From Hyphomicrobiales bacterium (GTDB taxonomy: Bacteria; Pseudomonadota; Alphaproteobacteria; Rhizobiales; Rhizobiaceae): a stretch of 64,000 bases of DNA. Below the pieces are notes generated by a model. It was given only the letters and a program-made list of their open reading frames with translations. It did not search any database and had not been told where the DNA came from. This document shows, one piece after another, positions 3,987 through 31,643 of this stretch. Location of the stretch: positions 83,221 to 147,220 of the forward strand of contig UBXV01000015.1 in NCBI GenBank assembly GCA_900469625.1, in the 5' to 3' direction. Within the stretch, counting starts at the first letter, position 1, and every line of letters starts with the position of its first letter. The position numbers were made by a program, and so were the translations under genes.

Positions 3987-4652
3987 TCAGCCCCGCTGGT
4001 CCCTGAGGAAAACCACGAGCGAGCGGCCGGCATCAAGGATGTGATCCCGTGTCAACAGGGAGGCGAGATCGGCATTGCCTCTGACGCAGGCGTCGAGGAT
4101 CGCTTCATGCTCGCGGGCTGCACGCTTCATGCCATCGGTCAGCGTCAGCTGGGCCCGCAAATAGCGGTCGATACGGTCGAGCGAGGCGCGCACGATCTGC
4201 AGATAGTAAGGACGCCGAGCCGCTTCATAGAGGCCGTAGTGGAAATTGCGGTTTGTCTCACCCCATTTGGACGAATCGGATTCCTTGCCGAATTCGTCGC
4301 AATGCCTGCGGGCAAGGTCGAGTGTCTTTCGATCCAGATTGGGAACCGCAAGCCGGATGACCTCGGCCTCGATAAGCGCGCGAAACTCGAAGATTTCCTC
4401 GATCTCCTCGATCGAGAGACCGGCGACCACGGCGCCCTTGTAGCGCTGCGTGGTGATCAAGCCATGCTGTTCCAGCCGCGACAACGCCTCGCGCACGGGG
4501 ATGCGGCTGGTGTTGAACATCTGCGCGATCTGGTCCTGCCGCAGGTTCTCGCCTTCCGCGAGCGCACCCTCGATGATCGCCTTGCGCAATGCCTCATAGA
4601 CGATATCGGCTGCGGAAGCGGCCTGCCTGACATCAACGGCATCAAGTTTCAT
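3987..4652 (-). CDS. GntR-family regulator, FCD subfamily
   Basis: The 221-residue protein has an N-terminal winged helix-turn-helix (about residues 14-80; SRIPVREAL is the recognition-helix signature) and an all-helical FCD ligand domain (about 90-215) with conserved histidines in FHYGLYEA and REHEAIL that normally hold a metal near the effector site. FCD regulators usually sense carboxylic or amino acids. It is transcribed away from the racemase-family gene at 4937, and the 284-base gap holds a 16-base perfect palindrome. A nearly identical palindrome lies before the importer at 6820, so it probably controls both. No good Shine-Dalgarno precedes the ATG at 4652. Confidence 0.9.
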
Positions 4653-4787
4653 CGCGTGCAGTTCCCGGTGTTTTTGTCTCTGGCGGAGGCGGTTCGGCGC
4701 CTGCCGTCTCTTCGGTCATAGGTCTATTCCTGCGGTCGGGCAACAGATGCGGAAGCCCTCGAAAGATTTTCGCATATTTCAGATTGT

Positions 4788-4803
4788 ATATTGGATCCAA
4801 TAT
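4788..4803. promoter_or_regulatory. Perfect palindrome, candidate GntR/FCD operator (copy 1)
   Basis: ATATTGGATCCAATAT is a perfect 16-base palindrome between the divergent GntR gene and the racemase-family gene. Its core ATTGGATCCAAT equals the operator I recall for the FCD-type repressor VanR of Caulobacter. Fifteen of 16 bases recur at 6746-6761. The regulator at 3987-4652 is the natural candidate to bind here; binding is inferred. Confidence 0.7.
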
Positions 4804-4936
4804 TTCTATGACTGTCATCACGTCGAAAGCCGTCGTGTCGTTCGGTTACGAAAACGCGCTCGTCAGACCGTGTCGACGGACTAGATTTCAAGCAGGGCAT
4901 GTGGACGCAAACCGCATGCATCGCATGGAGGCGAAA

Positions 4937-5968
4937 ATGCGCAGCAGCAAGGTCATTCATATCGTTTCATGTCATGCGGAGGGTGAGGTCGGCGACGTCA
5001 TCGTCGGCGGCGTGGCGCCGCCGCCGGGCAAGACGCTCTGGGAGCAGCGGCGTTTCATCGCCGAGGATCAGGCCCTTCGCAATTTCGTGCTCAACGAGCC
5101 ACGCGGCGGCGTCTTCCGCCATATCAACCTGCTGGTGCCGCCGAAGGACCCGCGCGCGACCATGGGCTTCATCATCATGGAACCGGAGGACACGCCGCCG
5201 ATGTCCGGTTCCAACTCGATCTGCGTTTCGACCGTGCTGCTCGACAGCGGCATCGTGCCGATGCAGGAGCCGGAAACCAGAATGGTGCTGGAGGCGCCAG
5301 GTGGCCTCGTCGATGTCGTCGCCACCTGCCGCAACGGCAAGGCCGAGCGCATCACCGTCACCAACGTTCCGTCCTTTGCCGGCAAGCTCGACGCCAAGAT
5401 CGAGGTGGAGGGCCTCGGCACGCTGACCGTCGACACGGCCTATGGCGGCGACAGCTTCGTCATCACGGATGCGCGCACGCTCGGTTTTTCCGTGACGCCG
5501 GACGAGGCCCGCGAACTGGCCGAGACCGGCATCAAGATCACCCGCGCGGCCAACGAGCAGCTCGGCTTCTCCCATCCCGAAAACCCGGAATGGGCGCATA
5601 TCTCGTTCTGCCAGCTGACTTTACCGATCGAAGAGCGCGACGGCGTCCTGCATGGCCGCAACACAGTGGTGATCCAGCCGGCCAAGCTCGACCGCTCGCC
5701 GACCGGCACCGGCTGCTCGGCGCGCATGGCAGTGCTGCACGCGCGCGGGCAGATGAAGGTGGGGCAGCGTTTCGTCGGCCACTCGATCATCGATTCGACC
5801 TTTGATTGCCGCATCGTCGGCGAAACGACGGTCGGCGGGCAGCCGGCCATCATCCCCGAAATCTCCGGCCGCGCCTGGGTCACCGGCACGCACCAGGTGA
5901 TGCTCGATCCCGCCGATCCGTGGCCGTCAGGTTACAGGCTCGCCGACACCTGGCCGCGCAAGCAATAG
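4937..5968 (+). CDS. Proline racemase superfamily protein (hydroxyproline epimerase/dehydratase-like) with Ser/Thr catalytic pair
   Basis: The 343-residue cytoplasmic enzyme matches the length and fold signature of proline racemase, 4-hydroxyproline 2-epimerase and trans-3-hydroxyproline dehydratase. The ATG at 4937 has GGAGG five bases upstream; a longer in-frame extension from 4784 overlaps the operator and is rejected. The first catalytic position, normally the Cys of MCGH, reads PMSGSNS with Ser90; the second, normally PCGTGTSA, reads SPTGTGCSA with Thr256. A Thr at the second site is known in trans-3-hydroxyproline dehydratases, so a dehydratase or another hydroxyproline reaction is more likely than racemisation. 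Neighbouring importer and Xaa-Pro aminopeptidase genes fit a role with proline-type imino acids. Exact substrate is unknown. Confidence 0.85.
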
Positions 5969-5978
5969 GCCCAGCAGG

Positions 5979-6599
5979 CTACACTTCAGCGATGATGCGC
6001 GTGGTGCCGACCCAGAGTTCACGGGCCGGCCCCGCGCCAATGTTGCGGGCGCGGTGCGGCAGCGACGAGGGAAAATGCAGGGTGTCGCCGGCCTTCAATA
6101 CATATTCCTTGCCGTCGATCTCGTAGAGCATTTCGCCCTCGATGAGATACAGAAAATCCTCGCCTTCGTGGCTTGTGAGTTCAGAGGCGTAACCGGCCGG
6201 CATATGGGTAATGCAGCCGTTGAGCTTCGCACCGGGGAAGCCGCGTTCGAGCAACTCGTAGACCCGCTCTTTCGTCTCGACATTGTAGCCGCGACGTTCA
6301 CCCGCATGCGACACCATGGAATGTGCGTGCTGCGGCGGCTGCGACAGGAAGGTGTCCACGCTGGTGCCGAGCGCATTGGCGACATTGTAGAGTGAGATCA
6401 GCGACGGTGTGGAAATGCCGCGCTCGATCTGGCTGATGAAGCCTTCCGTCAGCCCCGCTTCGCGCGCCACCTGCTTCATCGTCTTGCCGATTTCCTTGCG
6501 GCGGGCCCGGAGCATCTGGCCGATCGTTGCGGCTTGGGGCATGTCGGTGAGGGGGGCGCCGGCGTCTGCCGCTGGCGCCTCGTCGGTATCGAGAGGCAT
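5979..6599 (-). CDS. XRE-family regulator with C-terminal cupin domain
   Basis: This 206-residue protein has an XRE helix-turn-helix at about residues 25-82 (VAREAGLTEGFISQIERG) and a small cupin barrel at about 125-200 (HEGEDFLYLIEGEM and LPHRARNIG). Such proteins usually sense a small nitrogen compound or peptide-derived ligand through the cupin and control the adjacent transporter or catabolic genes. Its stop lies 10 bases past the end of the convergent racemase-family gene, and it is divergent from the importer operon starting at 6820. The shared gap contains a 7+7 inverted repeat that is a plausible operator. A second XRE-cupin protein at 24736 sits beside the second peptide importer. 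Confidence 0.88.
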   Translation of the reverse strand: MPLDTDEAPAADAGAPLTDMPQAATIGQMLRARRKEIGKTMKQVAREAGLTEGFISQIERGISTPSLISLYNVANALGTSVDTFLSQPPQHAHSMVSHAGERRGYNVETKERVYELLERGFPGAKLNGCITHMPAGYASELTSHEGEDFLYLIEGEMLYEIDGKEYVLKAGDTLHFPSSLPHRARNIGAGPARELWVGTTRIIAEV

Positions 6600-6634
6600 G
6601 GTTTTCTTTCCGCTTGACTCGCGTCTGTTGTTGT

Positions 6635-6653
6635 ACTTTAGTCCAGCTAAAGT
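6635..6653. promoter_or_regulatory. Inverted repeat, candidate XRE-cupin operator
   Basis: ACTTTAG-TCCAG-CTAAAGT is a perfect 7-base inverted repeat with a five-base spacer. It lies 36 bases upstream of the XRE-cupin start codon and between that gene and the importer operon. The position fits autoregulation or shared control; binding by the 5979-6599 product is inferred. Confidence 0.5.
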
Positions 6654-6745
6654 CGGCTATGCAAGCCCCGCTGTTGGCCGGCTCATGAAGGGGAACAACA
6701 AGAATGCCTTCGCATCAATCCGGACGCAAAGAAAAATATTCGGAA

Positions 6746-6761
6746 AAATTGGATCCAATAT
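6746..6761. promoter_or_regulatory. Candidate GntR/FCD operator (copy 2)
   Basis: AAATTGGATCCAATAT contains the perfect 12-base palindrome ATTGGATCCAAT (6748-6759) and matches the 4788-4803 site in 15 of 16 bases. It lies about 60 bases before the binding-protein start at 6820, a position consistent with repression of the importer and aminopeptidase operon. Confidence 0.68.
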
Positions 6762-6819
6762 CCAAATGATGCAAGGCGTGGCCCGCCGATGGCCGGTCGA
6801 TCAACAGGAGGAGTGAGAG

Positions 6820-8397
6820 ATGAAACGTTTGTTGCCGATCTTACTGGGTGCCGCACTCGGGCTGGCTGCAGCCACGTCGGCGCTTGCCATCGAGCGTGGC
6901 GGGGCAATGACCTTTGCGCGCTACGACGATTCCACGGTCATCGACCCGGTTTATGCCGACCGCAATCCGGATCTCTGGATGGTGACCGGTCTCTATGAGA
7001 CGCTGCTGCGCAATGGCCCTGACGGCGCCGTGGTGCCGGGGTTGGCCGAAGGCTATGACGTCGCGGCAGACGGTCTCTCCATAAGGCTCAAGCTGCGCGA
7101 CGGTTTGAGATTCTCCGACGGGTCGGCCCTGACCGGTGCCGATGTGGTGTTCTCGCTCGACCGGGCCCGCAACCCCGAGCTCGGCCCCTGGGCCGGCCTG
7201 CTCGGCGCGGTCGACAAGGTTTCGGCCGACGGCAACCAGGTGACGCTGACGCTCAAGAACCCGGATCCGACCATCGTCTCGATCCTTGCCACCTTCAACA
7301 CCGGTATCATGCCCAAGGCAGCCTTCGAAAAAGCGGCCGGCGCCAACGACCAGGAGAAGGCTCGCGCCTTCTTCGAGGCAGGCCCGGTCACCTCGGGTCC
7401 CTTCACGATGAAGAGCCGCGTGCAGGGCTCGAGCATGACCTTCGATCGCAATCCCAACTACTGGCGCCCTGGCTCGGACGGCAAGCCGTTGCCCTATCTC
7501 GACCAGGTCGATTTCGTCATCATCCCCGACGATGCCACCCGTATTCTCAAGCTCCAGGCCGGCGAAGTCGATGCGGCGGAGTTCATCCCCTTCGCCCGCG
7601 TCGGCGAGCTCAGTGCTGATCCCGCGCTGAAGATGGAACTGTTTCCCTCGACCCGCATCGTCTATGCGCCGATCAACACGCGCGAGACACGCAAGGACGG
7701 TTCCAAGAACCCGCTCGCCGACGTCAAGGTGCGCCAGGCACTGAATTATGCCACCGACAAGAGCGTGCTGATCAAGCTCGTCACCTTCGACACCGGCAAG
7801 CCGATGACGTCGCTGATGTCGGCGGCGACCCAGCTTCACTATGGCCCGGAGCCGCTCTACGCCTACAATCCGGAAAAGGCCAAGCAACTGCTCGACGAGG
7901 CCGGCCTTTCCGGCGGCTTCGATGTGACCCTCACGACGCTTGCGGGCAGCGCCGACGACGCGACCCTGTTCACCGCCCTTCAGCAGATGTGGTCGCCGCT
8001 TGGCGTCAACCTCAAGGTCGAGCAGGTCGACAACCCGACCCGCGGCGAGAAAAACCGTTCTGGCGACTTCGACATCCACAGCTATGGCTGGGCAAACGAC
8101 GTCAATGACCCGGCGCAGGTCACCGGCTGGCTCGGCTATTACAAACAGCGCCAGGCCGTCGGCACCGGCTGGAACAATGCCGAGTTCAACACTCTGTTCG
8201 AAGCGTCCAACGTCGAGGTCGATCCGGCAAAGCGCAAGGACGAATACAAGAAGATGCAGGAGATCTACGCCGAGGGTGCGCCGCTGCTCTTCCTGTTCGA
8301 AACGCCTTTTGCCGTCGCCGTGTCGAAGTCGGTCGAGGGCTATGTGCAGACGCCGCTCGGCGCGAACGATTTCTCCGAGGCCTGGCGGGCGAAGTGA
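6820..8397 (+). CDS. Peptide/nickel-type ABC transporter substrate-binding protein (family 5)
   Basis: The 525-residue protein has a signal peptide (about residues 1-23, ending ALA) and the solute-binding family 5 architecture, including a GLAEGYDVA-like N-lobe start and KLRDGLRFSDGSALTGADVVFSL. Family members deliver dipeptides or oligopeptides to the membrane complex. A strong AGGAGGAG ribosome site precedes the ATG. It is the first gene of a complete importer (8463-12295) followed by an Xaa-Pro aminopeptidase, which suggests proline-containing peptides as cargo; that substrate is inferred from context. The upstream gap carries both candidate operators. Confidence 0.92.
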   Translation: MKRLLPILLGAALGLAAATSALAIERGGAMTFARYDDSTVIDPVYADRNPDLWMVTGLYETLLRNGPDGAVVPGLAEGYDVAADGLSIRLKLRDGLRFSDGSALTGADVVFSLDRARNPELGPWAGLLGAVDKVSADGNQVTLTLKNPDPTIVSILATFNTGIMPKAAFEKAAGANDQEKARAFFEAGPVTSGPFTMKSRVQGSSMTFDRNPNYWRPGSDGKPLPYLDQVDFVIIPDDATRILKLQAGEVDAAEFIPFARVGELSADPALKMELFPSTRIVYAPINTRETRKDGSKNPLADVKVRQALNYATDKSVLIKLVTFDTGKPMTSLMSAATQLHYGPEPLYAYNPEKAKQLLDEAGLSGGFDVTLTTLAGSADDATLFTALQQMWSPLGVNLKVEQVDNPTRGEKNRSGDFDIHSYGWANDVNDPAQVTGWLGYYKQRQAVGTGWNNAEFNTLFEASNVEVDPAKRKDEYKKMQEIYAEGAPLLFLFETPFAVAVSKSVEGYVQTPLGANDFSEAWRAK

Positions 8398-8414
8398 CGC
8401 CTGCCTGAATTCTG

Positions 8415-8444
8415 GATGTCGGGCGGCGAACACCGTCCGACATC
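8415..8444 (+). other. Strong hairpin between binding-protein and permease genes
   Basis: GATGTCGGGCGG and CCGTCCGACATC pair over 12 positions (one G-U) around a six-base loop. No uridine run follows, so it is more likely an mRNA-stabilising or processing structure that raises binding-protein levels than a full terminator. Confidence 0.55.
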
Positions 8445-8462
8445 GTTCACAAGGTTCAATCG

Positions 8463-9404
8463 ATGCCCTCGTTATCCTACCTTTTCGCGCGGCTGCTGCA
8501 GATCATCCCAACCTTTCTCCTGGTGATGGTCTTCATCTTCCTGCTGGTCCGGCTTCTGCCCGGTGATCCGGCGATCGCCATGGCGGAGGCCAAGGCGACT
8601 GACGCGCAGCTCGAACAGATCCGCCACAATCTCGGTCTCGATCAGCCGCTGCCGATCCAGTTTCTGGTCTTCGTCAAGAACACGCTCACCGGCGATCTCG
8701 GCCGTTCGATCATGCTGAAGGCGCCGGTCACCGAGATCATCCTCGCGCGGCTGCCGACAACCATCTTTCTCGGCCTCTATTCGGTGCTGTTGGCGATCTG
8801 CCTTGCCGGACCACTTGCGTTCCTTGCGGCTTCGCGGGTCAATCGTCCCGTTGACGTCGCCATCCGCAGCGTCTTCCAGGTCGGCCTGTCGATGCCGGTA
8901 TTCTATATCGGGCTTTTGCTGCTGACGGTGCTGGCAGCCCAGCTGCGCTGGTTTCCGGTCGGCGGCTACGGCAAGACCTTTCTGGACAATCTGCATCATC
9001 TGATGCTGCCGGCGCTCAGCGTCGCGCTCTATACCTCGGCCATCATCCTGCGCAATCTCAGGGCCTCGCTGATCGAGGTGCTCGATGCCGACTACGTGCA
9101 GTTCGCACGCGCCAAGGGGCTCTCGCGGCGCATTGTCATGACGCGGCATGTGCTGCGCAACGCGCTCGTTTCGACCGTCACGCTGCTCGGCCTTTCGATC
9201 GGCAACCTGATGAGCGGAACGCTGGTCACCGAGACCGTCTTTGCCGTCCCCGGCGTCGGCCGGCTGATGCTGGAGGCGATCTTCGCGCGCGATTACCCGC
9301 TGATCCAGGGGCTGACGCTCACCTTCGCCGTTCTGGTTTCCGTCGTCTTCCTCATGACGGACATCGTACAATCCTGGCTCGATCCGAGGCTTCGCCAATC
9401 ATGA
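8463..9404 (+). CDS. Peptide ABC transporter permease (DppB-like)
   Basis: The 313-residue inner-membrane protein has the expected first membrane helix (LLQIIPTFLLVMVFIFLLVRL), the extracellular GDPAIAMAE motif of DppB/OppB proteins and six predicted membrane spans. The cytoplasmic coupling loop (ADYVQFARAKGLSRR) is the EAA motif that docks on the ATPase. Its stop overlaps the next start in ATGA at 9401-9404, indicating translational coupling to the partner permease. Confidence 0.93.
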   Translation: MPSLSYLFARLLQIIPTFLLVMVFIFLLVRLLPGDPAIAMAEAKATDAQLEQIRHNLGLDQPLPIQFLVFVKNTLTGDLGRSIMLKAPVTEIILARLPTTIFLGLYSVLLAICLAGPLAFLAASRVNRPVDVAIRSVFQVGLSMPVFYIGLLLLTVLAAQLRWFPVGGYGKTFLDNLHHLMLPALSVALYTSAIILRNLRASLIEVLDADYVQFARAKGLSRRIVMTRHVLRNALVSTVTLLGLSIGNLMSGTLVTETVFAVPGVGRLMLEAIFARDYPLIQGLTLTFAVLVSVVFLMTDIVQSWLDPRLRQS

Positions 9405-10270
9405 GCATGGTCTTGCAATCTCCCGTGCGAAAGATGGGTCGCGTCAGCGCCTTCCTTGGCCGCGCCTTCTCGCGACCGTCCTTCGTCATCGGTTTCGCCA
9501 TCCTCGCGCTGTCGATCGCACTGGCGCTGTTTCCGCAGTTTCTCGCGCCCTATGATCCACTCGCCTTCGATCTCGGCGCCATCCAGCAGGGGCCGAGCCT
9601 AGCGCATCCCTTCGGCACCGACAATTTCGGCAGGGACGTGCTGTCGCGCGTCATCTGGGCCTATCGCGTCGATATGCAGATGGCCTTCTTCGCGACGATC
9701 TTCGCGCTCGTGATCGGCGTCACGGTCGGCGCCTTCGTCGGCTATTACGGCGGCATCGCCGATACCATCTTCGGCCGCTGTGTCGACGCCATCATTACTT
9801 TTCCCTTCCTCGTGCTGGTGATCGCCATCGTCGCGGTGCTCGGGCCCGGCCTCGTCAACATGTATGTGGCGATCACGGCGGTGAACTGGGTCTACTACGC
9901 CCGCCTCACACGGGCGGAAATCATGGCACAGAAGGCCAACGACTATGCAGCCGCCGGCCGCGTGCTCGGCTATTCCGATCGGCGCATTATCTTCCGGCAT
10001 CTGCTTCCAAACGCGACCTCTCCGATCATTGTCTACTGGATGACCGACATGGCGCTCGCCATCCTGCTTGGTTCGTCGCTCGGCTATCTCGGCCTCGGTG
10101 CCCAGCCGCCGGCCGCCGAATGGGGCGTGCTGATCGCCGAGGGCCGCAACTTCCTGCTGACGGCGTGGTGGATGAGCCTGATGCCGGGCATCGCCATCGT
10201 GCTCACCGGCCTCGGCTTCAGCCTTGTCGGCGATGCGCTTGCCGACCTGCTCCGACCGAAAGGCCGCTGA
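9401..10270 (+). CDS. Peptide ABC transporter permease (DppC-like)
   Basis: The 289-residue partner permease carries an N-terminal helix followed by LAPYDPLAFDLGA and HPFGTDNFGRDVLSR, which are hallmarks of DppC/OppC proteins. The coupling loop NDYAAAGRVLGYSDRR lies near residue 190. It forms the membrane channel with the 8463 product. The ATPase gene starts one base after its stop codon. Confidence 0.93.
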   Translation: MSMVLQSPVRKMGRVSAFLGRAFSRPSFVIGFAILALSIALALFPQFLAPYDPLAFDLGAIQQGPSLAHPFGTDNFGRDVLSRVIWAYRVDMQMAFFATIFALVIGVTVGAFVGYYGGIADTIFGRCVDAIITFPFLVLVIAIVAVLGPGLVNMYVAITAVNWVYYARLTRAEIMAQKANDYAAAGRVLGYSDRRIIFRHLLPNATSPIIVYWMTDMALAILLGSSLGYLGLGAQPPAAEWGVLIAEGRNFLLTAWWMSLMPGIAIVLTGLGFSLVGDALADLLRPKGR

Positions 10271-10271
10271 C

Positions 10272-11285
10272 ATGAACGAGATCGAGAAGGAAACGGTCCT
10301 GGACGTCAGGCGACTGCGCACCGAATTCGGTCTTGCCGAACGTCCTCTGGTCGCCGTCGACGACGTGTCGTTTCAGGTGAAGGCAGGCGAGATCCTCGGC
10401 CTTGTGGGTGAATCCGGCTCGGGCAAGAGTATCACGCTGCGTTCGATCCTCGGGATCGTGCGGCCACGTGGCCGTGTGCATGGCGAAATTCTCTGGAAGG
10501 GCAGGGATCTCGTGCCGCTTGGCGAGGCGGCGCTCCGACGGGTGCGCGGGCGCGAGATCGCAATGATCTTCCAGGAGCCGATGTCATCGCTGAACCCGCT
10601 TTTGACGGTCGGTTTGCAGATCTCCGAAAACCTGGCCGCCCACACCGATCTCGATGCAAAAGCGAGGAAGGCCCGCGCGATCGAGCTCATGGATATGGTC
10701 GGCATTCCCGCCGCCCGGGACCGCCTCAGCGACTATCCGCACGAGTTTTCCGGCGGCATGCGCCAGCGGGTGATGATTGCCATCGCCCTTGCCTCCAACC
10801 CGAAGCTGTTGCTTGCCGATGAACCGACGACGGCCCTCGACGTCACCATCCAGGACCAGATCCTGCGGCTCATCCAGGCGCTCAGCCGTGATCTCGGCAT
10901 GGCCGTGATCCTTGTCACCCATGACATGGGTGTGGTGGCCGGGACCTGTGACCGGGTCGCTGTCATGTATGGCGGCCGGCTCTGCGAGACGGGGCCGACG
11001 GCCGATGTGATCGGCGACGCCCGACATCCCTATTCGCTCGGTCTTCTGCGCTCAATCCCGCGCAATGTCGCGCCGCGAACGCCGCTCTACTCCATCCCCG
11101 GCGCACCGCCGTCCCTGGACGCGCTGCCGGCGGGCTGTGCCTTCACGGCCCGCTGTCCCGTGGCTGGGCCCGAATGCCGCGACGTCCGTCCCAGGCTCGA
11201 CAGCACCGGGCCGCAGCGCCAGGTCGCCTGCCATCACCGCGAGCAAGCGCTCGTTCACTTCAGCGCGCAGGAGGCGGCGCAATGA
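10272..11285 (+). CDS. Peptide ABC transporter ATP-binding protein (DppD-like)
   Basis: The 337-residue ATPase has Walker A GESGSGKS (about residue 50), signature FSGGMRQR, Walker [13 protein letters not shown] and the H-loop VTHDMG. The C-terminus contains the oligopeptide-transporter extension with cysteines ([15 protein letters not shown]) that binds an iron-sulfur cluster in related DppD proteins. The ATG at 10272 follows the previous stop directly; a longer frame from 10224 overlaps the permease and is not needed. It ends in an ATGA overlap with the second ATPase. Confidence 0.92.
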
Positions 11286-12295
11286 TCGCTCCATCACCAC
11301 TGGCGGCCTCGCCACTGCTTTCGATCCACGATCTCGTCATGCGCTTCGAGAAGCCGCGTTCGCTGTCCGACACACTGGCAGGCCGACCGCGCCAGGTCGT
11401 CTCGGCCCTGAACGGCGTCGACCTCGATGTGATGCCGGCCGAGACGCTCGGGATTGTCGGCGAGTCCGGTTGCGGCAAGTCGACGCTCGCGCGCTGCATC
11501 GCCGGCCTCAACCGGCCGACATCGGGCGACATCCGCTTCAAGGGCGAAAGCGTCATCGACCTCAGGGGCGCAAGACGGCGCGACTACAACAAGCGGGTCC
11601 AGATGATGTTCCAGGATCCCTACACCTCGCTCAATCCGCGCATGACGGTGCGCGACACGTTGCGGGAAGCGATCACGGTCCATCGCATGCGCGAGGGGGG
11701 CGGCATCGATCGGCGCGTCGACGAGTTGCTCGACCTGGTGCGGCTGCCCGATGGCGCTGCCGACAAGTATCCGCACGAATTCTCAGGCGGACAGCGTCAG
11801 CGCATCGGCATTGCGCGGGCACTTTCGCTGGAGCCGACCTGCCTTGTTGCCGATGAGCTGGTGTCGGCGCTCGACGTCTCCGTTCAGGCGCAGGTGGTCA
11901 ATCTGCTCTTGGAGCTGCAGGATGATCTGGGCCTGACGGTGCTTTTCGTAGCGCATGATCTGAGGCTCGTGCGGCATGTCTCGCACCGCGTGGCGGTGAT
12001 CTATCTCGGCGCCATCGTCGAGATCGGCCCTTCGGAGACGCTGTTTGCAAGGCCCATGCACCCCTATTCGCAGGCGCTGCTTGCGGCAGCCCCGTCGCTC
12101 GACCCGACAAGCCGGCGCCGGGCGCCGGCACTCTCCGGCGAGTTGCCGAGCCCGCTCGACATCCCGCCCGGCTGTCCGTTCCACGTCCGTTGCCCGCACG
12201 CCACCGCGCTTTGCCGACGGGAAAAGCCGACGTTGCGGCCGGTTGGCCACGGCATGACCGCCTGTCACTTCGCCGAGACGATCGGCGGCGCGTAA
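11282..12295 (+). CDS. Peptide ABC transporter ATP-binding protein (DppF-like)
   Basis: The 337-residue second ATPase shows Walker A GESGCGKS, signature FSGGQRQR, Walker B and H-loop VAHDLR, plus a C-terminal GCPFHVRCPHATALC cysteine cluster. The Walker B aspartate is followed by ELVSALD rather than EPTSALD, which is a modest variation at the usual proline position. It starts inside the stop of the first ATPase (ATGA at 11282-11285), completing a five-component importer. Confidence 0.9.
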   Translation: MIAPSPLAASPLLSIHDLVMRFEKPRSLSDTLAGRPRQVVSALNGVDLDVMPAETLGIVGESGCGKSTLARCIAGLNRPTSGDIRFKGESVIDLRGARRRDYNKRVQMMFQDPYTSLNPRMTVRDTLREAITVHRMREGGGIDRRVDELLDLVRLPDGAADKYPHEFSGGQRQRIGIARALSLEPTCLVADELVSALDVSVQAQVVNLLLELQDDLGLTVLFVAHDLRLVRHVSHRVAVIYLGAIVEIGPSETLFARPMHPYSQALLAAAPSLDPTSRRRAPALSGELPSPLDIPPGCPFHVRCPHATALCRREKPTLRPVGHGMTACHFAETIGGA

Positions 12296-12323: not shown

Positions 12324-14126
12324 ATGACATCGAATGACAGGCCGGATATGGCGCGCCGGCTCGCGGCCCTGCGCCGCACACTCGAGGAACGGGGGCTCGA
12401 CGGCTACGTCGTCCCGCGCTTCGACGAGCATCAGGGCGAATATTGCGCCCCGCACGACAACAGGCTCGCCTTCATCACCGGCTTCACCGGCTCGGCGGGC
12501 GTCGCGGTCGTCATGCGCGACCGTGCCGCCATCTTCGTCGACGGCCGCTATCAGGTGCAGGTTCGCCAGGAAATCGATGTCGACAGTTTCTCCATCGAGC
12601 ATTTCTACGATGCGCCCTTGAAGGATTGGCTGCGCAAGAATCTGCGCAAAGGTGAACGCGTCGGCTTCAATTCCATGCTGCTGCCATCGACATGGGATTC
12701 CGACTGCGGCCAATCGGTTGTTGCAGCCGGCGCCCAATGGATTGCCGTGACCGATGATCTCGTCGATGCGATCTGGTCGGAGCAACCCGACAAGCCGCTC
12801 GGCACTGTGATCGCGTTGTCGCGCGACTATGCCGGAGAAAGCGTTGCCGCCAAGAAGCGCCGTCTTGGCCAGATGTTGGCGGACCACGGCGCCGATGTGC
12901 TGATCGAAGCCCAGCCAGACAACATTGCCTGGTTCCTGAACGTTCGCGGCCGTGACATCGCGTTCAATCCGATGCCGCAATCCTTCATGATCGCGGACCG
13001 GGAAGGCCGGGTCGAATGGCTGGTCGACCACCGAAAGCTGCCCAACGACCTCCAGGATTTCGAGCTCGAAGGGGTCGATATCACCGAGCCGGATCTGCTG
13101 CTCGACCGGGTCCGTAGCGCGACGGCCGGCCGGGTGGCCCTCGTCGATCCCGGTTTCGCGCCTTCGGCGGTCGCGCATGCGACGCGGGAAGCCGGTGGCA
13201 CCGTCCGGCTTCTGCGCAGCCCGATCACCCTTGCCAAGATGCTGAAGAACCCGGTCGAACTTTCCGGCTTTCGCGATTGCCATCGTCACGACGGTGCCGC
13301 ATGGATCAGGTTCTTTGCGTGGCTGGAAGCCAATGCAGCTGCGCGGGAAGAGCAGGGGCGGCCGGTGACGGAGCTGGAGGCAGAGGATCGTATCCTTGCC
13401 TTCCGGCAGATGGAGGCGACCTTCGTCGAGCCGAGCTTCCGCACGATCTCGGCCTCTGCCGGCAACGCCGCCATGTGCCACTATGCGGCGAGCGCCAAAA
13501 GCGACGCGCCGATCACGTCGCGCGGTGTCTATCTGCTCGATTCCGGCGGGCAATATTTCACCGGCACGACGGATGCGACCCGCACGACGGCGATTGGCGC
13601 GATCAGCGACGAGATCCGCCGCGCTTATACGGCTGTGCTCAAGGGGCTGATCTCGATGGTCTCGCTGAAGTTCCCGAAGGGAACCTACGGCCATCAACTT
13701 GACGCTTTTGCACGACGGCCGCTCTGGGACCTGGGCCTCGATTACGATCACGGCACCGGCCATGGCGTCGGCCATTTCCTGTCGGTGCACGAGCAACCGC
13801 AGCGTTTCGACCGGCGCGTCAACGAGATCGAACTGCGCCCAGGCATGGTGACGACCATCGAGCCCGGCTACTACAAGGCAGGCGAATACGGCATCCGCAT
13901 CGAGAACCAGGTGGAGGTGATCGACGACGGCGACGGCTTCATGAGCTTCCGCAGCCTGACGCTGGTGCCGATCGATCTGCGGCTCGCAGACCTCGCCTTG
14001 TTGAGCCAGGCCGAGCGGCAGTGGATCGACGCCTATCACTGGCGCATAACCAGCACCATGGCAGGCCTGTTCGAGCCGGAGACGACGGCCTGGCTTGCTG
14101 CGCGGACTGCGCCGATCGGCGACTGA
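12324..14126 (+). CDS. Xaa-Pro aminopeptidase (M24B)
   Basis: At 600 residues this is the long, three-domain form of aminopeptidase P, with two creatinase-type N-terminal domains and a C-terminal pita-bread domain. The five metal ligands are visible: two aspartates in YLLDSGGQY and TTDATRT, a histidine in GTGHGVGHFL and glutamates in TTIEPGYY and GIRIENQVE. It removes the first residue from peptides whose second residue is proline. It lies 28 bases after the importer genes and is likely co-transcribed, which is the main reason to suggest that the importer takes up proline-containing peptides. There is no signal peptide, so it acts in the cytoplasm. Confidence 0.93.
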   Translation: MTSNDRPDMARRLAALRRTLEERGLDGYVVPRFDEHQGEYCAPHDNRLAFITGFTGSAGVAVVMRDRAAIFVDGRYQVQVRQEIDVDSFSIEHFYDAPLKDWLRKNLRKGERVGFNSMLLPSTWDSDCGQSVVAAGAQWIAVTDDLVDAIWSEQPDKPLGTVIALSRDYAGESVAAKKRRLGQMLADHGADVLIEAQPDNIAWFLNVRGRDIAFNPMPQSFMIADREGRVEWLVDHRKLPNDLQDFELEGVDITEPDLLLDRVRSATAGRVALVDPGFAPSAVAHATREAGGTVRLLRSPITLAKMLKNPVELSGFRDCHRHDGAAWIRFFAWLEANAAAREEQGRPVTELEAEDRILAFRQMEATFVEPSFRTISASAGNAAMCHYAASAKSDAPITSRGVYLLDSGGQYFTGTTDATRTTAIGAISDEIRRAYTAVLKGLISMVSLKFPKGTYGHQLDAFARRPLWDLGLDYDHGTGHGVGHFLSVHEQPQRFDRRVNEIELRPGMVTTIEPGYYKAGEYGIRIENQVEVIDDGDGFMSFRSLTLVPIDLRLADLALLSQAERQWIDAYHWRITSTMAGLFEPETTAWLAARTAPIGD

Positions 14127-25429: not shown

Positions 25430-27022
25430 ATGATGAGAATGTTCACGGCCGCGGTTTTCGCGGCGTCCCTGATGCTGAGCGTATCGCCGGCAGCCCTGGC
25501 GGAAACCCCTGCCGAAGTGCTGGTGGTTGCCCAGAATATCGACGATATCGTCAGCATCGACCCGGCCGAAGCCTATGAGTTTTCGTCCGGCGAATACGTG
25601 ACGCAGACCTATGACCGCCTGGTACAGTACGATGCGCCCGACGTTCTGAAGCTTGCGCCCGGTCTTGCCAGCGAATGGACCGCCGACGATGCGGCAAAGA
25701 CGATCACCTTCACCCTGCGTGACGGCGTCACCTTCTCGTCCGGAAACCCGCTGCGCGGCGAAGACGTCGTCTATTCGTTCAAGCGCGTCGTTGTGCTCAA
25801 CAAGGCGCCCGCCTTCATCCTGACGCAGCTCGGCTGGACGCCCGAAAACATCGACAAGATGGTGACTGCCGACGGCAACAAGGTCACGATCAAGTATGAA
25901 GGCGACTTCTCGTCCGCCTTCGTTCTCAACGTGCTCGCCGCCCGTCCGGCCTCGGTCGTCGACGCGGAAGCCGTCAAGGCGAACGAAGCAGACGGCGACT
26001 ACGGAAATGCATGGCTGAAGGCGAACTCGGCCGGTTCTGGCCCCTTCGTGCTGAAGGCCTTCCGCGCCGGCGAACTTCTGAACCTGCAGGCCAACCCGAA
26101 CTACTTCGGTGGCGCTCCGGCCATCAAGGGCGTGATCATCCGTCACGTCGCAGAAGCGGCAACACAGCAGCTGATGCTTGAAACCGGCGACGTCGACATG
26201 GCGAAGAACCTGACGCCGGACCAGATGGCAAGCGTTTCGGCCAAGGGCGGCATGAAGGTTGAGTCCTATCCGCAGGCAGCCGTTCACTTCCTGTCGTTCA
26301 ACCAGAAGGCCGCAGCCCTGCAGCCGCCGGCCGTCTGGGAAGCCGCGCGCTACCTCGTCAACTACAAGGGCATGACCGACAGTTTCCTGAAGGGGCAGAT
26401 GGACGTCCACCAGGCCTTCTGGCCTAAGGGCTTCCCGGGCTCGCTCGACGAGACGCCGTACACCTACGACGTCGAAAAGGCGAAGAAGATCCTCGCAGAC
26501 GCCGGTATCAAGACGCCGATCAAGGTGACGCTCGACGTCATCAACTCGACGCCGTTCACCGACATGGCTCAGTCGCTGCAGGCTTCGTTTGCCGAAGCCG
26601 GCATCACCTTCGACATCATCCCGGGCACCGGCAGCCAGGTCATCACCAAGTATCGTGCTCGTACCCACGAAGCCATGCTGCTCTACTGGGGCCCCGACTT
26701 CATGGACCCGCATTCGAACGCCAAGGCGTTTGCCTATAACGAGGACAATGCGGACGACAAGTACCAGTCGACGACCACGTGGCGTAACGGCTGGGCCGTT
26801 CCGGCCGAGCTCAACGAAGAAACGAAGGCTGCGCTGAAGGAAGCCGATCCGGCCAAGCGTTCGGCGCTCTACGTCGATCTGCAGCGCAAGGTGCAGGAAA
26901 AGTCGCCGATCGTGATCATGTTCCAGGCCGCGACCCAGGTTGCGATGAAGGACAAGGTCGAAGGCTACGTCAACGGCGCCACTTCGGACTTCGTCTTCTA
27001 CCGCCTCGTGAAGAAGAACTGA
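25430..27022 (+). CDS. ABC transporter substrate-binding protein (family 5)
   Basis: The 530-residue protein has a signal peptide (about residues 1-24, ending ALA) and the family 5 fold, with APGLASEWTADDAAK and TLRDGVTFSSGNPL-type motifs. It should deliver a peptide or similar solute to the permeases encoded divergently at 22621-24615. Two adjacent ATG codons (25430 and 25433) follow AGGAG; either may be used. Its tie to the divergent transporter genes is by proximity only. Confidence 0.9.
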   Translation: MMRMFTAAVFAASLMLSVSPAALAETPAEVLVVAQNIDDIVSIDPAEAYEFSSGEYVTQTYDRLVQYDAPDVLKLAPGLASEWTADDAAKTITFTLRDGVTFSSGNPLRGEDVVYSFKRVVVLNKAPAFILTQLGWTPENIDKMVTADGNKVTIKYEGDFSSAFVLNVLAARPASVVDAEAVKANEADGDYGNAWLKANSAGSGPFVLKAFRAGELLNLQANPNYFGGAPAIKGVIIRHVAEAATQQLMLETGDVDMAKNLTPDQMASVSAKGGMKVESYPQAAVHFLSFNQKAAALQPPAVWEAARYLVNYKGMTDSFLKGQMDVHQAFWPKGFPGSLDETPYTYDVEKAKKILADAGIKTPIKVTLDVINSTPFTDMAQSLQASFAEAGITFDIIPGTGSQVITKYRARTHEAMLLYWGPDFMDPHSNAKAFAYNEDNADDKYQSTTTWRNGWAVPAELNEETKAALKEADPAKRSALYVDLQRKVQEKSPIVIMFQAATQVAMKDKVEGYVNGATSDFVFYRLVKKN

Positions 27023-28650: not shown

Positions 28651-28689
28651 TTGTGCAATTTGCTCAATAATAGTTTTCTTTTTGAGCAG
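28651..28689. promoter_or_regulatory. Three TTGAGCAA-like half-sites, candidate Lrp-type operator
   Basis: TTGTGCAA (28651-28658), TTGCTCAA (28660-28667, opposite orientation) and TTGAGCA (28682-28688) lie in an AT-rich stretch between the divergent Lrp-family and ocd genes. Repeated, phased half-sites are typical for Lrp/AsnC regulators. Binding is inferred. Confidence 0.5.
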
Positions 28690-28759
28690 GTTTAAAATTT
28701 CAACTCGCTTCTTGCATGCCTACGCTGACTTCATCAAATTTCGCGATGGAGTTGGAATC

Positions 28760-29806
28760 GTGGTTCAGTATGTCGGTGTCGGCAACGTAATCGAGCTGGT
28801 CAAATCGACCGGCATTGAAACGTTCCTGTTGGGTCTTGCGGAATATATCGAAGACGATTTCCGCAGGTGGAACGCGTTCGAGAAAACCCCGCGGCTTGCG
28901 AGCCATTCGAAGATGGGGGTCATCGAACTGATGCCGACGTCGGATGGCGAGCACTACGGCTTCAAATACGTCAACGGCCACCCGACGAACCCGAACGTCG
29001 GCCTGCAAACGGTGACAGCGTTTGGCGTTCTGTCGGATGTCAGCACGGGCTATCCCTGCCTTGTATCCGAGATGACGATCATGACCGGCCTGCGCACGGC
29101 GGCAACCTCGGCGCTGGCCGCCAAGTATCTTGCCCGTCCCGACGCTCGTTCGATGGCGATCATCGGCCTCGGTGCGCAGTCCGAATTCCAGGCCCTTGCA
29201 TTCCGGGCGCTGCTCGGCATCAAGCGCCTGCAGGTCTTCGACATCGACGGCGAAGCAGCGGACAAGTTCCTGAAGAACCTCGCCGACATGGATTTCGAGA
29301 TCGTCGTCGCCAAGACCGCCGAAGAGGCTGTTGCCGGAGCCGATATCATTACGACTGTGACGGCCGACAAGCGCAATGCGACGATCCTTTCCGACAACAT
29401 GGTCGGCGCCGGCGTGCACATCAACGCTGTCGGTGGCGATTGCCCCGGCAAGACCGAGCTGCAGGGCGATATCCTGCGCCGCGCCGACGTTTTCGTCGAA
29501 TATCCGGAGCAGACCCGCATCGAAGGTGAGATCCAGCAGATGGCGCCGGATTTCCCGGTCACCGAGCTCTGGCAGGTGATCACCGGGGATGCCGAAGGCC
29601 GCCGCAGCAACGCTCAGATCACCATCTTCGATTCCGTTGGCTTTGCCACGGAGGATTTTTCGGCGCTGCGCTTCCTGCGCGACAAGATCCAGGGCACCGC
29701 TTTCTACACCGAGCTCGACCTGACGACGCAGCCGGAGCACCCGCGTGATCTCTACGGTCTGTTCCGGCAGCAGCCGACGGCCCCTGCCGAGCGGAGCGCT
29801 GCGTAA
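28760..29806 (+). CDS. ocd: Ornithine cyclodeaminase
   Basis: The 348-residue enzyme converts L-ornithine to L-proline and ammonia using an internally recycled NAD. The Rossmann motif appears as IIGLGAQSEFQALAF, and ELMPTSDGEHYGFKYVNGHP and AVGGDCPGKTE match Agrobacterium-type cyclodeaminases. I chose the GTG at 28760 because GGAG lies eight bases upstream and the known N-terminus begins just before the YVGVGNVIELV segment; upstream in-frame codons lack a ribosome site. It begins the operon divergent from the Lrp-type regulator and ends one base before the next ATG. Confidence 0.93.
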   Translation: MVQYVGVGNVIELVKSTGIETFLLGLAEYIEDDFRRWNAFEKTPRLASHSKMGVIELMPTSDGEHYGFKYVNGHPTNPNVGLQTVTAFGVLSDVSTGYPCLVSEMTIMTGLRTAATSALAAKYLARPDARSMAIIGLGAQSEFQALAFRALLGIKRLQVFDIDGEAADKFLKNLADMDFEIVVAKTAEEAVAGADIITTVTADKRNATILSDNMVGAGVHINAVGGDCPGKTELQGDILRRADVFVEYPEQTRIEGEIQQMAPDFPVTELWQVITGDAEGRRSNAQITIFDSVGFATEDFSALRFLRDKIQGTAFYTELDLTTQPEHPRDLYGLFRQQPTAPAERSAA

Positions 29807-29807
29807 C

Positions 29808-30779
29808 ATGAAGAGACTGTCCGTACAGGCGCCGAAGGGCGTCGTGATGATCCGTCCGCACCATTTCGGCCCGAACCCGATGACGGCCAAGGACAACGCC
29901 TTCCAGTCGACCGACGAGGCGCGCAAGCCCTCGGCGATCGCGACGGCCGCCTTCGAGGAAGTGACGCGCATGGCCGATGGCCTGTCGGCCGCCGGTGTCG
30001 CCGTTCACATGTTCGAGGACGAAACGGTTACGCGTCCGGACTCGGTGTTTCCGAACAATTGGTTCTCCACCCATTCGGGCGGCCATGTGGCGATCTATCC
30101 TATGTATTCGGAAAGCCGCCAGAGCGAACGCCGCGCCGACATCGTCGAGATGCTGAAGTCAGAGTACCGCGTCCAGGACGTGATCGATTATTCCGGCCTT
30201 GAAAAGGACGGCGTCTATCTCGAAGGCACCGGCGCCATGGTGCTCGACCATATCGGTCGCGTCGCCTATGCCGCGCGCTCGAACCGCACCAACGAAGTGG
30301 CGCTGGAGCGCTTCTGCACCCACTTCAATTTCGAGCCGATGGTGTTCGGCGCAGTCGACCGCAATGGCAATTCGATCTACCATACCAATGTGCTGATGTG
30401 CATCGGCACGGATTTCGCGCTGATCGGCACCAGCATGATCCCCGATGTCGCGCGTCGGCAGGAAATCTGCGCGCGACTGGAGGAAACGGGCCGTCAGGTC
30501 ATCGACCTCACGATCGATCAGATCGAGAATTTCGCCGGTAACGCGATCGAACTCGATGGCGCCGACGGGCGGGTGGTCGCGATGTCGGCGCGCGCGCTCG
30601 CATCGCTGCGTGCGGACCAGATCAAGGCGCTCGAGGCTTCGGCCCGCGTGCTCGCCTTCGACGTGCCGACCATCGAACTTGCCGGCGGCTCCGTGCGCTG
30701 CATGCTCGCGGGCGTTCATTTGTCGCGTAGAGAACCGGCCGGTACGCAAAAGCTTTACGCCGTCCCATCCGATCGATAG
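29808..30779 (+). CDS. ctlX: CtlX-type citrulline/arginine hydrolase (amidinotransferase fold)
   Basis: The 323-residue protein belongs to the amidinotransferase/arginine-deiminase superfamily. His192 (SIYHTNVLM) and Cys298 (GGSVRCMLAG) fit the catalytic His and Cys, and LEGTGAMVLDH supplies the acidic residue. CtlX proteins are linked to citrulline breakdown. Placed between ocd and a dimethylarginine hydrolase gene, conversion of citrulline to ornithine is the step needed to connect them. Substrate is inferred from family and context. Confidence 0.87.
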   Translation: MKRLSVQAPKGVVMIRPHHFGPNPMTAKDNAFQSTDEARKPSAIATAAFEEVTRMADGLSAAGVAVHMFEDETVTRPDSVFPNNWFSTHSGGHVAIYPMYSESRQSERRADIVEMLKSEYRVQDVIDYSGLEKDGVYLEGTGAMVLDHIGRVAYAARSNRTNEVALERFCTHFNFEPMVFGAVDRNGNSIYHTNVLMCIGTDFALIGTSMIPDVARRQEICARLEETGRQVIDLTIDQIENFAGNAIELDGADGRVVAMSARALASLRADQIKALEASARVLAFDVPTIELAGGSVRCMLAGVHLSRREPAGTQKLYAVPSDR

Positions 30780-30810
30780 AAGCACCTCATCCAAGCCAAA
30801 GGTACTACAA

Positions 30811-31614
30811 ATGTCGCAAGCACGCCCCGTCTACAATTTCAACAACATCATCGTGCGTACCCCCTCGACCACCGTCGTCAACGGCCTGCGTGCCGATGAT
30901 CGTGGCAATCCGACCTATGAGGGCGTGAAGGCCGAGCACGATACCTACATCGCTGCGATGAAGGATGCGGGCGTCAAGGTCACCGTTCTTCCGGCGCTCG
31001 AAGCCTTCCCGGATTCGATCTTCGTCGAAGATCCGGCGCTGGTCTTCACCGAAGGCGCGATCCTGCTGCGTCCGGGTGCGGCCACGCGCGTCAAGGAGAC
31101 GATCGAGATCGAGCCGACGCTTCGTGCGATGTTCGAGACCGTTCTCGATCTGCCGGGCACCGGCCTTGCCGACGGCGGCGACGTGCTGACGACCCGCGAA
31201 AGCGTGATGATCGGCCTTTCGGCCCGTACCGACAAGGTCGGCGCCGAAGCGCTGCAGGCCTGCCTCGACAAGCTCGGCCGCAAGAGCGAGATCGTCTCCA
31301 CCCCTGAAGGCGTGCTGCATTTCAAGACCGATTGCTCGCTTCTCGACGAAGAGACCGTGCTGTCGACTGCGCGCCTTGCGAAGTCCGGCGTGTTCGACCG
31401 CTTCAAGCAGGTCATCATTCCCGAGGGCGAAGAGCCGGCGGCCAATGCACTGCGCGTCAACGACGTCGTCATGGTCGGCTCGGACTTCCCGCGCACCATC
31501 GAGATGCTCGACAAGCTCGGCTACAAGGTCGTGCCGATGAAGACCACTGAAATCGGCAAGATCGACGCGGGCCTGTCCTGCATGTCGCTGCGCTGGTTCA
31601 GCAACACGCTCTGA
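30811..31614 (+). CDS. ddaH: Dimethylarginine dimethylaminohydrolase
   Basis: The 267-residue enzyme has the DDAH arrangement: EDPALVFTEGAIL, ADGGDVL, catalytic His170 in GVLHFKTDCSLL and catalytic Cys257 in GLSCMSLRW. It hydrolyses methylated arginines to citrulline and methylamines in the cytoplasm. The start follows AAGG by eight bases. With the upstream ctlX and ocd genes it forms a plausible route from methylarginine to proline. Confidence 0.92.
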   Translation: MSQARPVYNFNNIIVRTPSTTVVNGLRADDRGNPTYEGVKAEHDTYIAAMKDAGVKVTVLPALEAFPDSIFVEDPALVFTEGAILLRPGAATRVKETIEIEPTLRAMFETVLDLPGTGLADGGDVLTTRESVMIGLSARTDKVGAEALQACLDKLGRKSEIVSTPEGVLHFKTDCSLLDEETVLSTARLAKSGVFDRFKQVIIPEGEEPAANALRVNDVVMVGSDFPRTIEMLDKLGYKVVPMKTTEIGKIDAGLSCMSLRWFSNTL

Positions 31615-31643
31615 TCCAGATACACATTCGCGGAGGAATTATC

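What the first reader, a model, noticed from the sequence alone, without database searches (positions are those of the whole stretch)
4788..6761. Shared VanR-like palindrome links a racemase-family gene and a peptide importer into one putative regulon
ATATTGGATCCAATAT (4788-4803) and AAATTGGATCCAATAT (6746-6761) differ at one base, and each precedes a catabolic start codon. An FCD-type GntR gene lies beside the first. The core equals the operator recalled for Caulobacter VanR, also an FCD regulator, with a similar recognition helix (SRMPVR versus SRIPVR). The regulon would join the enzyme at 4937, the importer 6820-12295 and the Xaa-Pro aminopeptidase, suggesting a proline- or hydroxyproline-peptide scavenging system (for example from collagen-like material).
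Basis: partly seen in the sequence, partly recalled or inferred. Interest (0 to 1): 0.72.

Follow-up and report, generated by a model that had tools for sequence, protein, structure and literature searches.

The report
Hydroxyproline-enzyme and peptide-importer regulon
A soil bacterium carries the same conserved DNA switch in front of a hydroxyproline-degrading enzyme and in front of a peptide importer paired with a proline-peptide-cutting enzyme, which suggests that one regulator turns both on when proline-rich peptides are food.

Summary
The two palindromes are real, exact at the core (ATTGGATCCAAT, 4790-4801 and 6748-6759), and the only two copies in the 6.54 Mb genome (no one-mismatch copies; 0.09-0.33 expected). 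They are conserved.

The neighbouring GntR regulator very probably owns them. With this GntR present, the enzyme's site is kept where importer and second regulator are missing from the locus (16 of 16 loci); it is absent from the 5 of 5 loci without this GntR. The importer's site occurs in 26 of 26 checkable upstream regions from genomes with the GntR (5 of them two bases off) and 0 of 7 without it. In another family (G492) importer and GntR are 0.8 Mb apart, yet importer and a 4-hydroxyproline operon share one altered core.

[quoted passage not shown] The regulator is not the Sinorhizobium HypR (31% identity; a separate HypR-like gene exists here); VanR identity is unsupported.

Binding, inducer and peptides carried remain inferred. 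A new variant of known hydroxyproline regulons.

The parts
3987..4652 (-). FCD-type GntR regulator, proposed owner of both operators; recognition segment SRIPVR
   Evidence: PF07729 and PF00392; co-occurrence with the sites
4783..4801 (-). Operator 1: core palindrome 4790-4801 plus a third half-site at 4783-4789; minus-strand reading ATTGGATCCAATATACAAT
   Evidence: site before 38 of 43 distinct dehydratase genes (>=84% identity); third half-site in 38 of those 38
4937..5968 (+). [quoted passage not shown]
   Evidence: NF047722 658.5 bits, cut-off 550; PF05544; motif positions; PDB 4k7g, deposited as '3-hydroxyproline dehydratse', among the closest solved chains
5979..6599 (-). XRE-cupin regulator (HTH_3 plus Cupin_2; PuuR/PsdR-like), proposed second regulator of the importer
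   Evidence: a relative lies in 28 of 29 distinct importer loci with enough sequence
6635..6653 (.). Candidate operator of the XRE-cupin regulator, ACTTTAG-N5-CTAAAGT
   Evidence: both arms exact in all 25 Rhizobiaceae/Phyllobacteriaceae importer upstreams that carry the GntR site; present (two exact, one with one mismatch) in 3 of 4 same-family upstreams that lack GntR
6748..6765 (+). Operator 2: core palindrome 6748-6759 plus a third half-site, ATTGGATCCAATATCCAA
   Evidence: best conserved 18-bp stretch in an alignment of 18 importer upstream regions; in register in 27 of 36 distinct importer upstreams
6820..8397 (+). Peptide ABC importer, solute-binding protein (SBP_bac_5)
8463..9404 (+). 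Importer permease 1
9401..10270 (+). Importer permease 2
10272..11285 (+). Importer ATPase 1 (with oligo_HPY)
11282..12295 (+). Importer ATPase 2 (with oligo_HPY)
12324..14126 (+). Xaa-Pro aminopeptidase-like M24 peptidase, last gene of the importer cluster
   Evidence: PF00557, PF16188, PF16189; a relative follows the importer in 29 of 29 distinct importer loci

Best explanation
The GntR protein (3987-4652) is a local repressor-type regulator of hydroxyproline and proline-peptide use. [quoted passage not shown] A hydroxyproline-derived ligand releases it, so that the cell makes the importer, the peptidase that frees residues N-terminal to proline or hydroxyproline, and the dehydratase together. 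The product, pyrroline-2-carboxylate, would be reduced to proline by an enzyme of the separate 4-hydroxyproline cluster. The importer has a second lock: the XRE-cupin regulator (5979-6599) at its own box, probably sensing the peptide. Shown by sequence: the sites, their conservation, their association with this GntR, the enzyme family, the importer-peptidase linkage. Inferred: binding, repression rather than activation, the ligand, the peptides carried, the second lock.
For: Uniqueness and conservation: 14 of 16 same-genus genomes hold a pair of exact cores about 2 kb apart at this locus; the other two have one exact core and one with a single mismatch. Enzyme side: site before 38 of 43 distinct dehydratase genes; GntR (>=75%) lies in the same locus in 37 of those 38 and 27 kb away in the 38th; the 5 without a site have no such GntR in their 21 kb. 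In 16 of 16 loci that have this GntR but no importer or XRE-cupin gene, the site is kept (14 exact, 2 with one mismatch). Where GntR has been displaced (L033, L035, L125, L126) the site stays with the dehydratase. Importer side: site in 26 of 26 checkable upstream regions from genomes with GntR, 0 of 7 from genomes searched without a close GntR. Independent lineage: in G492 (another family) the importer carries ATTGGATACAAT, while the 64%-identical GntR is 0.8 Mb away near an operon of SBP, DHDPS, aldehyde dehydrogenase, DAO and 4-hydroxyproline epimerase that has two copies of the same altered core before it. Devosia/Pelagibacterium GntR genes (51-54%) have that same altered core. Gemmobacter has a 54% GntR divergent from an Xaa-Pro peptidase and an only distantly related peptide importer, with a one-mismatch site between. 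Roseibium and Pannonibacter GntRs (L177 56%, L178 53%) with exact sites face clusters of 4-hydroxyproline genes.
Against: No binding or expression data. No sigma-70-like promoter was found in either intergenic region, so the repression geometry is open. The importer module also lives without a close GntR in 7 searched genomes, so its basic job does not depend on this control. In five Aminobacter-type upstreams the importer core is damaged (ATTGGATAAAAT); in one of these genomes (G415) the dehydratase is gone from the locus and GntR has no site of its own. In G492 GntR has no site directly upstream either, and two of its five exact sites are unexplained. Phaeobacter has enzyme, importer, XRE gene and peptidase together with a different GntR (33%) and no site. 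The reductase step is only a family match in another cluster. Most of the compared genomes are of one family, hence not independent; the independent importer cases are G492 and, with its chromosome unseen, Maritalea.
Confidence: 0.78

Rival explanations
1. The XRE-cupin regulator (5979-6599), not GntR, owns both palindromes and controls enzyme and importer.
For: It is encoded between the two sites and diverges from the importer; XRE-cupin proteins bind palindromes near their own gene (PMC7901475 passages).
Against: The enzyme's site is kept in 16 of 16 loci that have the GntR but no XRE-cupin relative in the locus (the rest of those genomes was not searched for it). Same-family importers with an XRE-cupin gene but no close GntR lack the site in register (G227, G288, G459, G048). 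A different conserved box next to the XRE-cupin gene is its likelier target.
Confidence: 0.05
2. Only the enzyme site is a working GntR operator; the importer site is kept through linkage and does nothing.
For: The two genes are neighbours in this family, and the Aminobacter-type importer core has decayed to two mismatches.
Against: The site is the best conserved 18-bp window in an alignment of 18 importer upstream regions (0.963; 171 other windows have mean 0.758, maximum 0.935). Maritalea and G492 keep it 41 and 47 nt before the importer gene with no GntR or dehydratase beside it.
Confidence: 0.1
3. The regulator is a VanR-type sensor of vanillate or another aromatic acid that has been wired to these genes.
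For: Same core as in vanillate-induced Caulobacter constructs; Caulobacter VanR is an FCD protein (recalled, not fetched).
Against: Relatives at 51-64% sit beside 4-hydroxyproline or proline-peptide genes in several lineages. The core is shared by GntR proteins of differing neighbourhoods, so it does not tell the ligand.
Confidence: 0.04
4. The importer is a general di/oligopeptide importer governed by XRE-cupin in the manner of PsdR; GntR adds only minor modulation.
For: PsdR, also XRE-cupin, represses dppA3 and mdpA, for uptake and cleavage of small peptides, and mdpA is induced by X-Pro dipeptides (PMC7901475 passages). The importer module exists without a close GntR.
Against: The GntR site is as conserved as the XRE-cupin box (0.96 each) and follows GntR presence.
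Confidence: 0.25

Closest known systems
HypR regulon of hydroxyproline use (Sinorhizobium meliloti and other Proteobacteria; PMC5343134 passages)
   Same: A GntR-family regulator controls hydroxyproline catabolism and transport, and secreted collagenases are mentioned in that section; G492 shows a relative of the window GntR near the same kind of 4-hydroxyproline operon.
   Different: The window GntR is 31% identical over 161 residues to the GntR beside the S. meliloti hyp cluster, and this genome has a separate 79% relative of that one next to its own hyp cluster. The targets here are a 3-hydroxyproline dehydratase and a peptide importer.
VanR of Caulobacter (vanillate repressor)
   Same: Core ATTGGATCCAAT (in vanillate-induced constructs, PMC6538847 passage).
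   Different: Different gene neighbourhood; operator here has a third half-site; direct protein comparison not made.
Atu1419 of Agrobacterium fabrum, tetrameric VanR-type repressor (PMC7797058 passages)
   Same: FCD-GntR repressor binding short palindromes; PDB 6z74 is among the matches of the window protein (that 6z74 is Atu1419 is recalled).
   Different: Operator ATGTATACAT; hydroxycinnamic-acid genes; whether the window protein is a tetramer is unknown.
PsdR with dppA3 and mdpA in Pseudomonas aeruginosa (PMC7901475 passages)
   Same: XRE-cupin regulator of genes for small-peptide uptake and cleavage, with an X-Pro dipeptide response.
   Different: No GntR layer in the passages seen; the peptidase is a different gene (MdpA); orthology not tested.
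Proline racemase superfamily cluster 3 t3HypDs (eLife 03275, PMC4113996 passages)
   Same: Ser90 in a cluster 3 enzyme and Thr in place of the second Cys in t3HypDs; dehydration of trans-3-hydroxy-L-proline. Transport systems and transcriptional regulators are mentioned as genome neighbours of this cluster in general.
   Different: The words GntR and dipeptide do not occur in its main text; no operator or regulon is described in the passages seen.

Membership tests
FCD (FadR-type) GntR regulators | N-terminal GntR winged HTH plus C-terminal FCD domain | tested here: met
   PF00392 60.3 bits, PF07729 87.2 bits, both over cut-off
FCD (FadR-type) GntR regulators | Palindromic operator, sometimes with an extra half-site 7-12 nt from the centre | tested here: inconclusive
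   Candidate core palindrome and third half-site found by sequence; extra half-sites reported in PMC4494728 (passages); binding not tested
HypR of Sinorhizobium meliloti | Orthology to the GntR beside the hyp cluster | tested here: not met
   31% over 161 aa; separate 79% relative in this genome; that the S. meliloti gene is HypR is inferred from its position
HypR of Sinorhizobium meliloti | Control of hydroxyproline catabolic genes | tested here: inconclusive
   Sites before hydroxyproline genes in this genome and relatives, no expression data
VanR (vanillate) | Gene beside vanAB and response to vanillate | not tested
   Neighbour here is the dehydratase; vanAB was not searched for in the genome; ligand not testable
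VanR (vanillate) | Operator core ATTGGATCCAAT | tested here: met
   not diagnostic, since GntR proteins 38-41% identical share it
[quoted passage not shown]
   658.5 bits against 550
[quoted passage not shown] Ser90 in cluster 3 | tested here: met
   S90; DRSPTGTG at 252-259 against PMC4113996 passages
XRE-cupin regulators (PsdR/PuuR type) | HTH_3 plus Cupin_2 | tested here: met
   PuuR equivalog cut-off not reached (61.5 of 211 bits)
XRE-cupin regulators (PsdR/PuuR type) | Binds a palindrome beside its own gene | not testable with these tools
   Candidate box only

The most novel reading that the evidence does not exclude
This GntR defines a second, HypR-independent class of hydroxyproline regulator spread over several alphaproteobacterial families. 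Its 19-bp three-half-site operator has been placed more than once in front of Xaa-Pro-peptide importers, making a dedicated hydroxyproline-peptide scavenging circuit under double control by free ligand (GntR) and peptide (XRE-cupin). The protein may act as a tetramer that bridges the two operators 2 kb apart, as proposed for looping by Atu1419.
Probability: 0.4. Interest if true: 0.6.

Novelty: new variant of a known kind. Interest (0 to 1): 0.45.

Why it matters
It gives a testable regulator, operator and target set for trans-3-hydroxyproline use, and ties it to a peptide importer whose ligand is unknown. It suggests that soil bacteria may take hydroxyproline from plant or animal proteins as peptides and not only as the free amino acid. 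It also indicates that an operator core well known from synthetic biology (VanR) occurs beside several different GntR regulators, which matters when operators are used to guess regulators.

Tried and rejected
Ornithine cyclodeaminase-family gene in the window (28682-29806) as the pyrroline-2-carboxylate reductase: rejected, it is an ornithine cyclodeaminase over cut-off in an arginine/citrulline cluster. The next PF02423 hit is ectoine EutC; two weaker hits were not followed. A PF02615 gene at C55:46155-47129, inside the hyp cluster, remains the candidate reductase; a second PF02615 gene (C69) was not followed.

Other exact cores in relatives (L117-L122) have no GntR of this kind beside them and lack the third half-site; taken as chance or other regulators. 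Two further exact ATTGGATACAAT places in G492 (L216 between an EAL gene and a decarboxylase; L217 before an aminotransferase fusion) lack the third half-site and were not assigned.

Phaeobacter (L175, 1 opened of 57 Phaeobacter records) has enzyme, importer, XRE gene and peptidase together, but its GntR is 33% identical and no site precedes the importer: a different regulator, told as evidence against.

Importers of 48-52% identity (L144-L151, 8 genomes) were left out of the importer table (threshold 60%); none has a close GntR or a site with at most one mismatch in its 4.6-kb locus.

The pattern control of the genome search (pattern read backwards) contains CTAG and is probably biased low in such genomes (recalled), so I relied on Markov expectations.

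Five of the 48 enzyme upstream rows (L002, L127, L132, L134, L138) are artefacts of cut genes and were dropped, leaving 43. Two of the 31 importer rows (L109, L110) repeat L031 and L029, leaving 29. The alignment used 18 of the 36 importer upstreams, chosen by me among those with the site. The GntR tree has long branches and open forks and is not used as an argument. In one search some of the S. meliloti frames used were on the wrong strand; the GntR comparison was redone with the right frame.

Literature searches for a published regulator of trans-3-hydroxyproline genes or a hydroxyproline-peptide importer of this kind; none seen in these listings. Most subscription papers are not in the library, so this is not proof of absence.
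Full report
OBSERVATION. The 12-bp core is exact in both, and the genome (G000, 6.54 Mb, window at C20:83221-147220) has no third place with 0 or 1 mismatch; Markov models give 0.09-0.33 exact copies per genome by chance. With two mismatches allowed nothing would be remarkable in the window.

THE ELEMENT IS LONGER. Read in the same sense, the two sites are ATTGGATCCAATATACAAT (minus strand, 4801-4783) and ATTGGATCCAATATCCAAA (plus, 6748-6766), 17 of 19 equal. The extra part is a third half-site (NTNCAA) next to the core. It is present on the upstream side in 38 of 38 distinct enzyme sites (after dropping five artefact rows), on the gene-facing side in 26 of 27 importer sites, on one side in 12 of 16 sites of distant GntR relatives or their presumed targets, and in 1 of 12 control sites (4 beside 38-41% GntRs, 6 with no such GntR beside them, 2 unassigned in G492). 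Extra half-sites 7-12 nt from the centre are reported for GntR regulators (PMC4494728, passages).

GENES. 3987-4652 is an FCD GntR; [quoted passage not shown] Ser90, Thr256); 5979-6599 an XRE-cupin regulator; 6820-12295 a peptide ABC importer; 12324-14126 an Xaa-Pro aminopeptidase-like M24 enzyme. The genome has only two proline-racemase-family genes at E <= 0.001, this one and one in the separate hyp cluster on C55.

WHO OWNS THE SITES. (a) Same genus: 16 of 16 genomes have an exact core; 14 have a pair of exact cores about 2 kb apart at this locus. G013 and G015 have one exact core and one with a single mismatch. Outside the genus 9 of 135 genomes have any exact core. (b) Enzyme: of 43 distinct upstream regions of dehydratases at least 84% identical, 38 have the site (32 exact, 5 with one mismatch, 1 with two). 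GntR at least 75% identical is in the same locus in 37 and 27 kb away in one (G014). The other 5 (L038, L044, L056, L057, L070) have neither site nor such a GntR in their 21 kb (Fisher p = 1e-6, not corrected for relatedness; the rest of those genomes was not searched). (c) In 16 loci with this GntR the importer and XRE-cupin gene are absent; 16 of 16 keep the site, 14 exact and 2 with one mismatch. (d) Importer: of 36 distinct upstream regions (SBP at least 60% identical), 27 have the site in register (17 exact, 5 with one mismatch, 5 Aminobacter-type with two) and 9 do not (one of the 9, G048, has a two-mismatch match out of register). GntR (64% or more) is present in the genome of 26 of those 27 (G005 matched to its plasmid record by coordinates); the 27th, Maritalea, is known only from a plasmid. 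Of the 9, seven genomes were searched and have no close GntR: G227, G288, G459, G048 (none at 1e-40; G459 is only 61% complete), G716, G739 (best 32%), G987 (none at 1e-20, no positive control in that call). Two (Phaeobacter L175, Roseibium aggregatum L223) are plasmids whose chromosomes were not searched.

INDEPENDENT CASES. Maritalea (L180): importer and XRE gene with ATTGGATACAAT before the importer, no GntR or dehydratase beside it. G492: the importer carries ATTGGATACAAT; GntR (64%) is 0.8 Mb away, near an operon of SBP_bac_3, transporter parts, DHDPS, aldehyde dehydrogenase, DAO and 4-hydroxyproline epimerase (NF010578, 589.7 of 376 bits) with two ATTGGATACAAT cores before it. G492 has 5 exact ATTGGATACAAT places in all; two of the five are unassigned, and GntR has none directly upstream of itself. 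Devosia and Pelagibacterium GntRs have the same altered core. Gemmobacter: 54% GntR, site with one mismatch, then an Xaa-Pro peptidase and a distant peptide importer (SBP 27% identical). Roseibium L177 and Pannonibacter L178: 56% and 53% GntR, exact site, clusters of 4-hydroxyproline genes. In all, 12 of 12 examined loci with 48-56% GntR have the site with at most one mismatch upstream of GntR; one of them (L112) had been found through the site, and only 4 of the plasmid hits below 60% were opened.

SECOND REGULATOR. A box ACTTTAG-N5-CTAAAGT (6635-6653) lies 35 nt from the XRE-cupin start. Its arms are exact in all 25 Rhizobiaceae/Phyllobacteriaceae upstreams that carry the GntR site, and it is present, with at most one mismatch, in 3 of 4 same-family upstreams that lack GntR. 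In an alignment of 18 chosen importer upstreams the GntR element and this box each score 0.96 in conservation; the other 171 windows have mean 0.758 and maximum 0.935. PsdR, an XRE-cupin repressor of dipeptide uptake and cleavage, is the nearest described parallel (PMC7901475, passages).

MODULE. The aminopeptidase follows the importer in 29 of 29 distinct importer loci with enough sequence (31 rows, two of them repeats). So the transported peptides are probably X-Pro or X-Hyp, by inference.

PATHWAY. Dehydration of trans-3-hydroxy-L-proline leads to pyrroline-2-carboxylate, which a reductase takes on (PMC4113996, passages; reduction to proline is established knowledge). The reductase candidate is a PF02615 gene inside the C55 hyp cluster, which has its own GntR 79% identical to the one beside the S. 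meliloti hyp cluster. No site with up to two mismatches was found in either fetched stretch of that cluster. Calling that gene HypR rests on its position and on PMC5343134, not on a test.

CONCLUSION. A real, conserved GntR regulon, as far as comparison can show, joining a 3-hydroxyproline dehydratase to an X-Pro peptide importer and peptidase, with a second regulator on the importer. Binding, direction of control and ligands are inferred.

Noticed in passing
window 6635-6653: Inverted repeat ACTTTAG-N5-CTAAAGT, conserved before importers with and without the GntR; likely operator of the XRE-cupin regulator.
   Followed up: yes
window 28682-32444: Ornithine cyclodeaminase and citrulline hydrolase CtlX (both over cut-off), then a dimethylargininase-like protein and a Lys/Arg/Orn-type binding protein (both below cut-off): an arginine/citrulline utilisation cluster.
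   Followed up: partly
L113-L116: GntR proteins only 38-41% identical to the window protein (two confirmed as FCD) sit beside the same exact 12-bp core, two of them next to an aminotransferase or a BenE transporter gene.
   Followed up: partly
L168 (G415): The dehydratase is gone from the locus, but GntR, XRE-cupin gene, importer and the altered importer site remain.
   Followed up: no
L216, L217 (G492): Two further exact ATTGGATACAAT sites, one between a decarboxylase and an EAL gene, one before an APH-M23-aminotransferase fusion gene; unexplained.
   Followed up: partly
L224: A Klebsiella plasmid carries a 45% relative of the G492 solute-binding protein with permeases, ATPases, a GntR gene, a creatininase-family gene and an isoaspartyl peptidase, between transposases.
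   Followed up: no
window 25430-27022: A second binding protein of the peptide/nickel type (NCBIfam matches below cut-off) lies in the same window.
   Followed up: no
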